64,000 nt of DNA from Bacteroidota bacterium (GTDB lineage Bacteria > Bacteroidota > Bacteroidia > Flavobacteriales_D > Crocinitomicaceae), in contig JACPUU010000001.1 of assembly GCA_016192075.1 (NCBI GenBank), positions 496,001-560,000 of the forward strand. Reading direction: 5' to 3'. The position numbers and the translations under genes are program-made. Of the stretch, positions 51,490-63,129 are shown in pieces (within the stretch, counting starts at the first letter, position 1; each line of letters opens with the position of its first letter). The notes beneath the pieces were generated by a model. That model was not told the origin of the DNA and searched no databases. It was given only the letters and a program-made list of their open reading frames with translations.

Positions 51490-52200
51490 ATGAAATCGGG
51501 TATCGTTGTTTTTTTATTTTGTTTAAGCCGGCTGTCGTTTGGGCAGGATCCAAAAGAATTGCGTCATGTTACGACGGATTTGTTCTATGCTGATTTTTAC
51601 ATTTTACTGGAAAGTAAAAAAATCAGGTACGTTGATACGCTCGATTACTACTGGTTTAAGTCACAAGCCATCCATAATTCCCAGGGGTTTTCGTCAGGTC
51701 ATGTGCTGAATGGCCCCTTTATTCAATACTATATTTCAGGTCAGCTGGCAGAACAGGGCCAGTTTGAGGCCGGTCTCAAAACCGGTGAATGGAAAACCTG
51801 GTATGAAACCGGTCAGCTGCAATCCATAGAAAACTATGAGAACGGTGTGCTGGAGGGGAATTTTTTCAAATACGATCCGGCCGGAAAAATAACGGTATCC
51901 GGTTCTTACAAATCAGGAAATTTTCACGGTGAAATAGTGGAGAACGGAACCGTTACGGATTATAAAAACGGGCGAAAACGCGAACAAAAACAGGGACGCA
52001 CGGAAGAAGCTGCTCCTGAAGACGGGAAAGAAAAAACCAGGGAGGAAAAGAAAGAGAACCGTGAACAGAAAAAAGATACAAACAGTGAATCAGACGCCCG
52101 GGAAAAAAATCCGGACGGGGAGGAGCAAAAGTTTTCATTCAAAAAATTGTTTGGGCCAAAAGAAAAATCAACCAAAAAAGAACACAAGCCAGGTGAGTGA
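51490..52200 (+). CDS. MORN-repeat (YwqK-like) protein with highly charged tail
   Basis: 236 residues. A cleaved signal peptide covers about 1-18 (LSRLSFG then Q). Four MORN-type units of the form G-x-x-x-x-G-x-x-x-G-x-W/Y run from about 68 to 165 (NGPFIQYYISGQL, GLKTGEWKTWYETG, NGVLEGNFFKYDPAG, SGNFHGEIVENG). The last 70 residues are extremely rich in Lys and Glu (KEKTREEKKENREQKKD), ending FSFKKLFGPKEK. MORN proteins of this type are common in Bacteroidota with unclear roles. It is the first gene of the secretion locus and has a gap of 71 bases to the next gene. Co-transcription is inferred. Confidence 0.75.
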   Translation: MKSGIVVFLFCLSRLSFGQDPKELRHVTTDLFYADFYILLESKKIRYVDTLDYYWFKSQAIHNSQGFSSGHVLNGPFIQYYISGQLAEQGQFEAGLKTGEWKTWYETGQLQSIENYENGVLEGNFFKYDPAGKITVSGSYKSGNFHGEIVENGTVTDYKNGRKREQKQGRTEEAAPEDGKEKTREEKKENREQKKDTNSESDAREKNPDGEEQKFSFKKLFGPKEKSTKKEHKPGE

Positions 52201-52271
52201 GATAACACCCTTTGAGTAACAAGGTTTGTGTGAAACAGATCAGGCAGCATGTAAGTCCGGAAGAAGAAAAA

Positions 52272-53513
52272 ATGATTAAAAAACTAAAATCATCATCCAT
52301 TTATTACGCACTCTTTTTGAGTATTGTAATAGCGCTGGTATTGGGGAGTATGGTTTTGTTTTCAGGCATGAACCGTCAGTTTGCCAGCCGGCTTGAAATG
52401 GAAGAACTGCTTATGGATAACGCTGTTTCGGGCATTGAATATGCGCAGGCCAATTATGCTGAATTACCAAACCGTCAGCCGGTAGATATGCGCCTTTTTG
52501 GTGAAGGAATAGATTCAGTACGCATTGAGAAAAAACAATGGGGCGCATTTACCATTTTAAAAAGCACGGCGCTGCATGGTGAAACAGCATACACCAAAAT
52601 TGCACTGACCGGCCAGGTTAACCAGGTCAATGAGCCAACACTCTATGTTTCGGATCAGGGAAGACCAATAGCACTGTGCGGAGACGTACGCATTGAAGGC
52701 AGGGCCATGCTGCCCGAAGCGGGTTTGAAACGTGCCTACATTGAAGGTAAAAATTATACCGGTGACAAAATGATTTATGGAACACTTTCTAAATCCGATC
52801 GCAATTTACCCCCGGTTGATGACGTTTTTCTGGGGCAGGTAATGGCATTTGAAGGTGAGATCAAACCCTGGGATAAACTGGAAGATTCCATCCGGATTTC
52901 TTTTGGTGATGAAGGCGTTCATTATATCAGTGACGGGTATACCCTGCTTGAAAATGTGGTGGTAGAAGGCCAGGTAATTATTGAGTCGCGCGATTCCATT
53001 TTTGTAGGGGCAAGTGCCCGACTTAACGATGTTATTCTCAAAAGTCCGGTGGTTTATTTTCAAAAAGGATTCACCGGAACGGTACAGGTTTTTGCAAGCC
53101 GTAAAATAGTGCTTGAAGACCAGGTATTGCTGAAATACCCAAGTGTGCTTGGCTTGATAGAAGAAGAATTTCCAAAAGAAAAAAATGCAGAAATAACATT
53201 GGGTGCACAAAGCCAGGTAATCGGGTCAGTCTTTCTCTTCAGCCGCGCAGAAAATTTCAGGTTGCCGGTACAACTCAATGCAGGCAAAGAATCTGAGATT
53301 GACGGCCTGGTTTACTGCAAGGGAAAAACACAACTTGAAGGAACGGTGAACGGTCATTTGTATACTGAAAAATTCTACCTGAAAACAAAAGCATCTACCT
53401 ACGAAAATCATTTGCTGGATGCAAAAGTACTGGATCAATTGCCGGCTGATTTTATCTATGTCAGTTTGTTAAAAAGCACCAATCAATTAACCCGTCTGGA
53501 ATGGCTGAACTGA
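52272..53513 (+). CDS. GspK/PilX-like large pseudopilin with beta-solenoid domain
   Basis: 413 residues from the ATG at 52272 (MIKKLKSSSIYYALFLSIVI). The N-terminus is like GspK or PilX: short basic leader, one hydrophobic helix (about 10-33), then a long helix with an AxSGxxxA-type motif (LLMDNAVSGIEYAQANY near 57-73). As in GspK, Glu at +5 of a possible prepilin site (Ser9/Ile10) is absent. From about 120 to 380 the protein reads as a right-handed beta-solenoid, with repeats around LYVSDQGRPIALCGDVRIEG, IIESRDSIFVGASARLNDVI, VFASRKIVLEDQVLL and AEITLGAQSQVIGSVFL, comparable to bactofilin-like sheets. It overlaps the next gene by 13 bases. No close match to a named family is claimed. Confidence 0.7.
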   Translation: MIKKLKSSSIYYALFLSIVIALVLGSMVLFSGMNRQFASRLEMEELLMDNAVSGIEYAQANYAELPNRQPVDMRLFGEGIDSVRIEKKQWGAFTILKSTALHGETAYTKIALTGQVNQVNEPTLYVSDQGRPIALCGDVRIEGRAMLPEAGLKRAYIEGKNYTGDKMIYGTLSKSDRNLPPVDDVFLGQVMAFEGEIKPWDKLEDSIRISFGDEGVHYISDGYTLLENVVVEGQVIIESRDSIFVGASARLNDVILKSPVVYFQKGFTGTVQVFASRKIVLEDQVLLKYPSVLGLIEEEFPKEKNAEITLGAQSQVIGSVFLFSRAENFRLPVQLNAGKESEIDGLVYCKGKTQLEGTVNGHLYTEKFYLKTKASTYENHLLDAKVLDQLPADFIYVSLLKSTNQLTRLEWLN

Positions 53514-61662: not shown

Positions 61663-62635
61663 ATACCTGCTGTTTTTGCCGGTTGTTATTATTTCAGGAA
61701 TCCAGATGAGTTCCTGCGAGGCAGTTTTTGAACGCGATATTTCAGAAGATACACTGAACCTGATTATTCCGGTAAACAATGACACTTCTGAAACCAACAA
61801 TGTTCAGTTTAAGTGGGACGAACTGAAGGGGGCCAGTTATTATAACCTACAGATTGTCAAACCCTCTTTTTCGGCTATCGATGAATTTATTCTGGATTCA
61901 AACATTACCGGAGGTGAATTTTATTTTGCACTTGACCCGGGCAGTTACCAGTTCCAGATTCGCGCAGAAAATTCAGCTTATCAGTCACTATGGACAGGGC
62001 CCTATACCTTGGTAGTAGACAGTGTTTCAGATCTGACCAACCAGGTTGTACCGCTGCTTGCACCGGCTGATTTGTTGTATTCAAACGATGCCAATTTTAC
62101 CTTCAGCTGGCAACCGGTTTATTCAGCTGAGACGTATGAATTTCAGTTGCGTGCCGGTTCTGATTTTTCTTCAAGCGGAACCATTTTACATGATGCAGCC
62201 GGTATTTACGGAACGTCGTATTCACCTCCCGCCGGTCTGTTCAGTTCAGAGGGCGCCTATGCCTGGGGCGTTAAAGCGCTGAACCAAACCAGTGCGTCTG
62301 ATTTTTCTGACCACACCATTTATATTGATCTGACCGTTCCAAATTCGCCCGCATCTGTTTCACCTGCACACGGTGCCTCATTTGCTGATACGGTTGTTTT
62401 GAAATGGACAACCGGGGCCGATGTTGGTACTATCCAATCTCCCGTTTCACGCATGGTTGAAATTTCTTCTGACACACTTTTTGGATCCATCATTCAAACG
62501 TATACCGTAACGGTTGATACTGTACAGCACGTATTTACCGGTTCAGGAACATACTGGTGGCGTGTTTATACAGTCGATCAGGCGGGTAATACCTGTACCA
62601 ATTACAGTGCTCATCGCAAAGTCATTATTCCTTGA
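61622..62635 (+). CDS. Lipoprotein with FN3-like repeats in the secretion locus
   Basis: 337 residues; the lipobox is MSSC near position 32, so the longer-than-usual leader may mean a later start, although no better ATG follows. After the Cys the protein has about three fibronectin type III-like beta domains (about 50-140, 145-235, 240-335), with FKWDELKGASYYNLQI, FSWQPVYSAETYEFQLRAG and LKWTTGADVGTIQSPVSRMV as strand patterns. It overlaps the GspM/PilO-like gene by 41 bases and the GspC-like gene by 1 base. It may be a pilotin-like or substrate-facing accessory of the secretin; this is inference from position only. Confidence 0.72.
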   Translation: MQNSCFSITARLTKYLLFLPVVIISGIQMSSCEAVFERDISEDTLNLIIPVNNDTSETNNVQFKWDELKGASYYNLQIVKPSFSAIDEFILDSNITGGEFYFALDPGSYQFQIRAENSAYQSLWTGPYTLVVDSVSDLTNQVVPLLAPADLLYSNDANFTFSWQPVYSAETYEFQLRAGSDFSSSGTILHDAAGIYGTSYSPPAGLFSSEGAYAWGVKALNQTSASDFSDHTIYIDLTVPNSPASVSPAHGASFADTVVLKWTTGADVGTIQSPVSRMVEISSDTLFGSIIQTYTVTVDTVQHVFTGSGTYWWRVYTVDQAGNTCTNYSAHRKVIIP

Positions 62636-63129
62636 TGGACAAAAAAATCAGAAATAGAATTTTATATGTTAGCGTAGCAGTTTTGTGGGCGATAGCCATT
62701 TATCGTACCTGGAAAAATTATGAAGCAAAAGCAGAAAATAGTGAGACAGCGTTGATTAGTACACCAGCCGTGTCACCCATGCAGTTTCGTAAAGATACGT
62801 TTGAACTGGTTTTGCCTGAGTATGACCCTTTTCTGCAAAAATCTTGGACACCGTCCGTACAAAATGAATCACCCATAACAGATGTTAAACAAAATCAGGC
62901 GGTTAAAAAAGATCCGGTGGTGCCGGTTGTTAAAACGTGGCCGCAGATAGACTATTTTGGGTTTGTCAAAAACCGGAATCAGAATTCAACCTTATGCCTG
63001 TTGAAAATTGATGGCAGACAGGTGCAGTTAAGTAAAGGCGAGAAATACAACGGGTTACTGGTTCAAAATACGTACCGGGATTCCGTGCAGTTGGTATTTG
63101 AAGGAGAAACAAAAACAGTGCGTAAATAG
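62635..63129 (+). CDS. GspC/PilP-like inner-membrane protein
   Basis: 164 residues from the ATG at 62635 (start overlaps the previous stop as TGATG). One membrane helix at about 8-24 is followed by a Pro/Gln-rich linker (about 28-100) and a small beta domain (about 103-164: YFGFVKNRNQNSTLCLLKID, GEKYNGLLVQNTYRDSVQL, FEGETKTVRK). This is the HR-domain pattern of GspC and PilP, which docks on the N0 domain of the secretin. It completes the inner-membrane to outer-membrane link with GspL, GspM and GspD-like proteins. Confidence 0.75.
   Translation: MDKKIRNRILYVSVAVLWAIAIYRTWKNYEAKAENSETALISTPAVSPMQFRKDTFELVLPEYDPFLQKSWTPSVQNESPITDVKQNQAVKKDPVVPVVKTWPQIDYFGFVKNRNQNSTLCLLKIDGRQVQLSKGEKYNGLLVQNTYRDSVQLVFEGETKTVRK

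What the first reader, a model, noticed from the sequence alone, without database searches (positions are those of the whole stretch)
51490..63129. Complete type II secretion/type IV pilus-like machine in a Bacteroidota genome
One near-continuous locus encodes a pseudopilin set (GspK-, I-, J- and G-like), GspF, prepilin peptidase, GspE ATPase, GspD secretin and GspL-, GspM- and GspC-like parts. Catalytic and structural motifs are intact: Walker A SGPTGSGKTTT, GxGD in the peptidase, the secretin C-terminal signature and the zinc cysteines of GspE. T9SS is the usual export machine in this phylum and several T9SS cargoes lie in the same window, so this would be a second envelope-spanning secretion system. 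Gene order is K-I-J-F-G-O-E-D-L-M-x-C, with a MORN protein in front and an FN3 lipoprotein inserted. No retraction ATPase is seen, so a secretion role is favoured over twitching. What it exports is unknown.
Basis: partly seen in the sequence, partly recalled or inferred. Interest (0 to 1): 0.85.

Follow-up and report, generated by a model that had tools for sequence, protein, structure and literature searches.

The report
Bacteroidota pseudopilus secretion operon with cargo
This is a complete, already described kind of piston-like protein-export machine found in some Bacteroidota, and its neighbourhood now points to a concrete candidate for what it exports: a family of giant (about 1,900-residue) proteins encoded beside it far more often than chance allows.

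Summary
Confirmed: thirteen ORFs at 51490-63129 encode a type IV filament-superfamily machine (MORN-K-I-J-F-G-O-E-D-L-M-x-C). The genome has one such ATPase, one secretin, one prepilin peptidase, no PilT, and a T9SS. It is not new as a kind: the same order, including an unassigned gene between M and C, is the Bacteroidetes "T2SS" of Cytophaga hutchinsonii (PMC5553014), which others place near type IVa pili (PMC6668835). Curated canonical-T2SS cut-offs are not met.

Added here: (1) MORN and FN3 lipoprotein x are constant members; 51 of 81 loci show the exact 13-gene order; x has a surface-export-like acidic motif. (2) L folds like full GspL; K is a tip-like pilin with a beta-solenoid, as in ComZ. 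(3) The peptidase lacks the methylase half and pilins carry Ala, not Gly, at -1. (4) A giant protein family without Pfam/NCBIfam match or T9SS tail lies beside the operon, here 7.7 kb from the secretin. In 295 genomes it co-occurs with the machine (odds ratio 7.8, p 4e-9) and lies within 20 kb in 10 of 26 genomes (0.46 expected). These giants are candidate cargo. That is inference: 34 genomes have a giant without the machine.

The parts
51490..52200 (+). MORN: secreted MORN_2-repeat protein, 236 aa, signal-peptide-like N-terminus and charged tail; first gene of the operon
   Evidence: MORN_2 7.4e-12; homologue in the same position in most loci, and it travels with K-I-J-F when the operon is split
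52269..53513 (+). K: tip-like minor pilin, N-terminal pilin helix plus ice-binding-protein-like beta-solenoid (likely start ATG 52269; mechanical ORF starts 52212)
   Evidence: AlphaFold pLDDT 91.8; Foldseek best hit ComZ 6qvi E 1.7e-3; VIA Z 11.3 over 278 residues to ComZ, Z about 12 to ice-binding proteins
53501..53881 (+). I: minor (pseudo)pilin
   Evidence: N_methyl 1.2e-3; position and HMM
53871..54389 (+). J: minor (pseudo)pilin
   Evidence: weak NCBIfam ComGF 6.6e-4; prepilin motif and position
54379..55527 (+). F: inner-membrane platform protein (GspF/PilC)
   Evidence: T2SSF 3.5e-41
55532..55639 (.). dispersed inverted-repeat element in the F-G gap (about 25-nt arms), at the boundary of the two operon modules
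   Evidence: arms found elsewhere in the genome; hairpin -41.8 kcal/mol, z -5.2
55663..56079 (+). G: major pseudopilin with a DFDGDGEINVW acidic loop near the C-terminus
   Evidence: best NCBIfam PilA_Myxo 1.1e-10, GspG only 8e-3
56081..56572 (+). O: short prepilin peptidase (A24) without the N-terminal methylase half
   Evidence: Peptidase_A24 1.1e-6; 153-176 aa in 78 loci; only A24 peptidase of the genome
56569..57987 (+). E: assembly ATPase (GspE/PilB)
   Evidence: T2SSE 8.9e-125; tree
57997..59904 (+). D: secretin
   Evidence: Secretin 1.2e-36; only secretin of the genome
59901..61079 (+). L: GspL-like, actin-like cytoplasmic domain + TM + periplasmic ferredoxin-like domain
   Evidence: AlphaFold pLDDT 86.6; Foldseek 4pht/1yf5/1w97 (cytoplasmic GspL) and 5n7l/6ghu/2w7v (periplasmic GspL)
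61129..61662 (+). M: GspM/PilO-like bitopic protein
   Evidence: position and conservation; no family match
61622..62635 (+). x: FN3-type lipoprotein with acidic motif after the lipobox Cys (surface-export-signal-like); constant operon member
   Evidence: SusE-like 4.2e-4; homologues in 72 of 81 loci; motif count
62632..63129 (+). C: GspC/PilP-like bitopic protein with an HR-like C-terminal segment
   Evidence: position and conservation; no family match
63461..64000 (+). NarL-type response regulator, cut by the window end (ends at about 64120); starts the downstream island that holds the giant protein (contig C2:563507-569200) and the LolA3-family gene (C2:570827-571546)

Best explanation
The locus encodes the T2SS-like, T4aP-related secretion machine of Bacteroidota. 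Shown by sequence: one assembly ATPase (E) acts with a platform protein (F) to build a pseudopilus of G capped by I, J and K; the outer-membrane channel is D; L, M and C couple the two; O processes the prepilins; MORN and surface-lipoprotein-like x are constant extra parts. No retraction ATPase exists. Inferred from T2SS knowledge: periplasmic proteins delivered by Sec enter the secretin vestibule and are pushed out by the growing pseudopilus, with the beta-solenoid protein K at its tip. Inferred from genetic linkage: major cargo, where present, is the giant SWVGLGW protein family encoded next door, which has a Sec-like leader and no T9SS tail, is often encoded with OmpH/Skp-like and LolA3-like periplasmic proteins, and stands next to DUF6443/RHS genes.
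For: Complete component set; single ATPase and secretin, no PilT in 17 of 17 genomes; GspL topology; tip-like K; published secretin, platform and pseudopilin mutants of C. hutchinsonii change the outer-membrane protein profile and cellulose use but not gliding; co-occurrence OR 7.8, p 4e-9, and linkage within 20 kb in 10 of 26 genomes against 0.46 expected; giants without T9SS tail in Pfam; F. johnsoniae LolA3 is Fjoh_0605, six numbers from its machine Fjoh_0611-0622.
Against: No secretion was measured here. 34 of 248 genomes without the machine have a giant homologue, so the giants do not strictly need it, and 21 of 47 genomes with the machine lack one. The phylogeny is unresolved: an AU test does not reject grouping with T2SS or with T4aP. 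K resembles ComZ, a competence tip pilin, so DNA uptake is not excluded. The co-occurrence test is not corrected for phylogeny beyond noting 17 families with both.
Confidence: 0.7

Rival explanations
1. The machine secretes other proteins (for example polysaccharide-use proteins, as suggested in C. hutchinsonii) and the giant/RHS genes sit next to it only because both occupy the same variable genomic sites or are T9SS clients.
For: 34 genomes have a giant but no machine, and 21 the reverse; RHS-type genes are known to occupy variable sites; T9SS cargo genes also lie in the same stretches; C. hutchinsonii mutants lost outer-membrane bands CHU_1277 and CHU_1253.
Against: Linkage in 10 of 26 genomes against 0.46 expected; accompanying periplasmic chaperone-like genes; no T9SS tail on 20 giants scanned with Pfam.
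Confidence: 0.4
2. It is a DNA-uptake (competence) pilus.
For: K is closest to ComZ, a proposed tip DNA receptor of T. thermophilus.
Against: No PilT in any of 17 genomes; fused GspL instead of PilM + PilN; machine in only 47 of 295 genomes of the class; published mutant phenotype is on outer-membrane proteins and adhesion, transformation not tested.
Confidence: 0.1
3. It is a non-retracting adhesive type IV pilus.
For: ATPase NCBIfam score is slightly higher to PilB than to GspE; published phylogeny places it with T4aP; mutants adhere less to cellulose.
Against: GspL topology, no PilT, no pilus reported for mutants or wild type in the sources read.
Confidence: 0.15
4. It is a dedicated machine that displays lipoprotein x (and perhaps others) on the surface.
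For: x is a constant operon member with an acidic motif like known lipoprotein export signals.
Against: Surface lipoprotein display is general in the phylum, whereas the machine is in 16% of class genomes.
Confidence: 0.08

Closest known systems
Putative T2SS of Cytophaga hutchinsonii (CHU_3191-CHU_3202; F. johnsoniae Fjoh_0611-0622), PMC5553014
   Same: Same gene order F-G-O-E-D-L-M-[one unassigned gene]-C with minor pseudopilins upstream of F; T9SS in the same cell
   Different: The published account leaves the gene between M and C and the MORN gene unassigned and names no linked cargo; here both are shown to be constant members and a giant protein family is linked. I did not compare the sequences with C. 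hutchinsonii itself
Canonical T2SS (GspCDEFGHIJKLMO, e.g. E. coli K-12 gsp)
   Same: Single ATPase, no PilT, fused GspL topology, bitopic C-like protein, GspK-like tip position
   Different: Below all NCBIfam equivalog cut-offs; no recognised GspH; peptidase without methylase half; Ala at -1; different gene order; extra MORN and x
Type IVa pilus (PilB/PilC/PilQ/PilMNOP)
   Same: Published marker phylogenies cluster the Bacteroidetes system with T4aP; major pilin scores best with a PilA model; ATPase scores slightly higher with PilB
   Different: No PilT, no separate PilM and PilN
ComZ of Thermus thermophilus (6qvi, PMC6561018)
   Same: Pilin helix plus large beta-solenoid resembling ice-binding proteins; proposed tip position
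   Different: Sequence identity only about 12%; ComZ belongs to a competence locus with a retracting pilus, K to a machine without PilT
Bacteroidota polymorphic toxins (RHS/YD, TANFOR class; PMC3482391, PMC7073777)
   Same: Large Sec-type proteins of Bacteroidota with RHS genes nearby; export route unproven
   Different: The giant family here matched no Pfam or NCBIfam model, TANFOR (TIGR02542) included; TANFOR proteins were proposed as T9SS clients

Membership tests
Bacteroidota T2SS-like system (Wang 2017; 'so-called T2SS of Bacteroidetes', Denise 2019) | Clustered order minor pilins-F-G-O-E-D-L-M-x-C | tested here: met
   against the locus numbers; same order in 51 of 81 loci
Bacteroidota T2SS-like system (Wang 2017; 'so-called T2SS of Bacteroidetes', Denise 2019) | ATPase branches with other Bacteroidota members of the system | tested here: met
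   one clade of Bacteroidia ATPases, 100/99
Bacteroidota T2SS-like system (Wang 2017; 'so-called T2SS of Bacteroidetes', Denise 2019) | Mutation changes the outer-membrane or secreted proteome | not testable with these tools
   published only for C. hutchinsonii
Canonical T2SS | Reaches NCBIfam equivalog cut-offs of GspD, GspE, GspF | tested here: not met
   123.8 of 351.35, 465.7 of 630.25, 235.9 of 424 bits
Canonical T2SS | No PilT-type retraction ATPase | tested here: met
   17 of 17 genomes
Canonical T2SS | GspL: actin-like cytoplasmic plus ferredoxin-like periplasmic domain in one chain | tested here: met
   fold search
Canonical T2SS | ATPase inside the GspE clade | tested here: inconclusive
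   outside it in the best tree, AU p 0.18-0.33 for grouping with it
Canonical T2SS | Bifunctional peptidase/methylase GspO | tested here: not met
   163 aa, A24 domain only; 153-176 aa in 78 loci; E. coli gspO is 225 aa
Canonical T2SS | Pseudopilin set G, H, I, J, K | tested here: inconclusive
   four pilin-like proteins K, I, J, G; no H recognised
Type IVa pilus | PilT retraction ATPase | tested here: not met
Type IVa pilus | Separate PilM and PilN | tested here: not met
   fused L
Type IVa pilus | ATPase reaches PilB cut-off | tested here: not met
   488.4 of 675.65 bits
Tad pilus | TadA/CpaF-type ATPase | tested here: not met
   TadA model 62.5 of 373.15 bits, far below GspE/PilB

The most novel reading that the evidence does not exclude
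The Bacteroidota T2SS-like machine is an exporter of giant proteins: a previously unnamed family of about 1,900-2,300-residue Sec-exported SWVGLGW proteins, assisted by OmpH/Skp-like and LolA3-like periplasmic proteins and linked to DUF6443/RHS genes, leaves the cell through this secretin instead of the T9SS.
Probability: 0.4. Interest if true: 0.85.

Novelty: new member of a known kind. Interest (0 to 1): 0.6.

Why it matters
Denise et al. raised the possibility that this system is a protein-secretion machine evolved from type IV pili independently of the T2SS, but its cargo has stayed unknown. A genetically tractable relative, F. johnsoniae, carries the machine (Fjoh_0611-0622) with LolA3 (Fjoh_0605) close by, so the cargo question becomes directly testable. 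If the giants are the cargo, Bacteroidota have a dedicated exit for very large RHS-associated proteins besides the T9SS, and the MORN protein and the FN3 lipoprotein become part lists for structure work.

Tried and rejected
The ATPase phylogeny was meant to decide T2SS against T4aP: the best tree keeps the system apart from proteobacterial GspE, but AU tests reject neither grouping, so I do not claim a resolved origin. Idea that x is a stray insertion: rejected (72 of 81 loci). Idea that large FN3 proteins next to C in relatives outside the class are x orthologues: dropped; the matches cover FN3 segments only, and these proteins look like YD-repeat or other large secreted proteins. Idea that giants in machine-less genomes carry a T9SS tail as an alternative route: none of ten did in Pfam, so that simple contrast does not explain them. 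PDB search with the giant profile gave nothing. VIA-align rows for K outside the solenoid are not interpreted.
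Full report
Observation. The ORFs at 51490-63129 are real, contiguous and on one strand. Family searches identify F, E, D, O, MORN and a PilN domain in L clearly, and I, J, G, K, M, C weakly or only by position. The genome (4.65 Mb, 99.9% complete) has one T2SSE ATPase above cut-off, one secretin and one A24 peptidase, and a 2,441-residue SprA, hence a T9SS.

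Prior art. The same kind of locus is published. In C. hutchinsonii, CHU_3199 (F), 3198 (G), 3197 (O), 3196 (E), 3195 (D), 3194, 3193 and 3191 (L/M/C candidates) with minor pseudopilins 3200-3201; mutants in D, F and G have altered cellulose-bound outer-membrane proteins and cellulose use but glide (PMC5553014). Table numbers for F. johnsoniae, Pedobacter and Odoribacter show the same spacing, with one unassigned gene between M and C. Denise et al. found that this system always clusters with T4aP and may be an independently derived secretion machine (PMC6668835). So the machine is a new member of a known kind.

Core composition. I fetched 80 related loci and built HMMs. Exactly MORN-K-pilin-pilin-F-G-O-E-D-L-M-x-C is seen in 51 of 81 rows including the window; most of the others are cut by contig ends or are rearranged. 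Two modules, MORN-K-I-J-F and G-O-E-D-L-M-x-C, can swap order or orientation (L054, L062, L096, L132). MORN therefore travels with the minor pilins, and x with the secretin side. In 51 x proteins with a recognisable lipobox, position +3 is Asp in 37, +6 Glu in 38, +8 Asp in 38 and +9 Ile in 47, resembling the lipoprotein export signals reported for the phylum (F. johnsoniae SDDFE; PMC5080379). Surface exposure of x is inference.

Structures. L matches GspL cytoplasmic domains first and GspL periplasmic domains as well, so it has full GspL topology. K (pLDDT 91.8) is an N-terminal pilin helix with a beta-solenoid; Foldseek's best hit is ComZ (E 1.7e-3), and VIA-align gives Z 11.3 over 278 residues to ComZ at a large overall rmsd (13.7), and Z about 12 over about 175 residues at 3.2 A to ice-binding proteins, the same solenoid relation that was published for ComZ. 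A tip position for K is inference from ComZ and GspK.

Processing. Prepilin -1 residues are Ala in 68 of 72 G and 60 of 66 J; I shows the same Ala by inspection but not by the pattern count. Relatives outside the class have Gly at -1, and three of them have 253-282-residue peptidases with a CxxC pair, whereas peptidases of the class are 153-176 residues. Loss of the methylase half and the Gly-to-Ala change thus coincide; causation is not shown.

Retraction and phylogeny. PilT is absent in 17 of 17 machine-bearing genomes. Bacteroidia ATPases form one clade (100/99) sister to a same-phylum group (97/86), outside the proteobacterial T2SS clade, but AU tests do not reject alternatives.

Cargo lead. 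Clustering genes flanking the 80 loci gave recurrent families: a giant protein with conserved leader MIxxIRxSKxxK, OmpH-like proteins, a small lipoprotein-like protein, S74-type fibre proteins and RHS-core cassettes. 36 of 68 loci with at least 5 kb of flank hold an RHS-core or giant-type ORF (motif-based). In the window's own genome the operon is followed by a response regulator, a T9SS-tail protein, the small lipoprotein-like protein, a 1,897-residue giant, a 489-residue protein, a LolA3-family gene and DUF6443/RHS proteins. Each of the three giants of this genome has a LolA3-family gene within about 6 kb.

Test. The hypothesis came from the 80 loci; I tested it on an evenly drawn sample of 295 genomes of the class. 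Both 26, machine only 21, giant only 34, neither 214: OR 7.8, Fisher p 4e-9 (without the window's genome p 1e-8). Of the 26, the giant lies within 10 kb of the secretin in 6 (0.25 expected), within 20 kb in 10 (0.46 expected, p 7e-11). The thresholds (1e-60, 1e-30) were chosen once, before the counts were seen. The giants have a Sec-like leader by inspection (no SignalP was available) and no T9SS tail in Pfam.

Literature convergence. F. johnsoniae LolA3 is Fjoh_0605, with no gliding or T9SS phenotype on deletion (PMC11885536), six locus numbers from the machine. That its neighbours include the giant is inferred from Flavobacterium relatives (L058), not checked in F. johnsoniae.

Verdict.

Noticed in passing
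55532-55639: Dispersed inverted-repeat element (about 25-nt arms, strong hairpin) between F and G, with arm-like copies on several contigs; F and G overlap or abut in most relatives, so this looks like a lineage-specific insertion at the module boundary.
   Followed up: partly
L151 and L161: Copies of the machine in records filed as plasmids: Flavobacterium jumunjinense (11 kb linear record, with an RHS-core gene) and Pontibacter sp. G13 (92.9 kb, rearranged, with a DUF6443 gene).
   Followed up: partly
L053 and L075; L054 and L066: Two copies of the operon in one genome: MAG MH-08apr19-199 and Flavobacterium sp. KMS.
   Followed up: no
L037 and L071: Loci with G-O-E-D-L-M followed by no detectable x or C; both have RHS-core or giant ORFs nearby.
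   Followed up: no
L133-L137: Secretins of about 712-734 aa in one group of Bacteroidia, longer than the usual 635-650.
   Followed up: no
49354-51045: Glycine-rich (ALK_LTK_GRD) protein with a T9SS tail on the opposite strand just upstream of the operon.
   Followed up: no
48329-48907: LytTR-type DNA-binding protein upstream of the operon; a NarL-type regulator lies directly downstream.
   Followed up: no
L087 and similar (cluster 4): Proteins with a GHLPNIPSA...LLEKIEELTLY C-terminus (S74-like fibre chaperone) recur near the operon in 11 loci.
   Followed up: no
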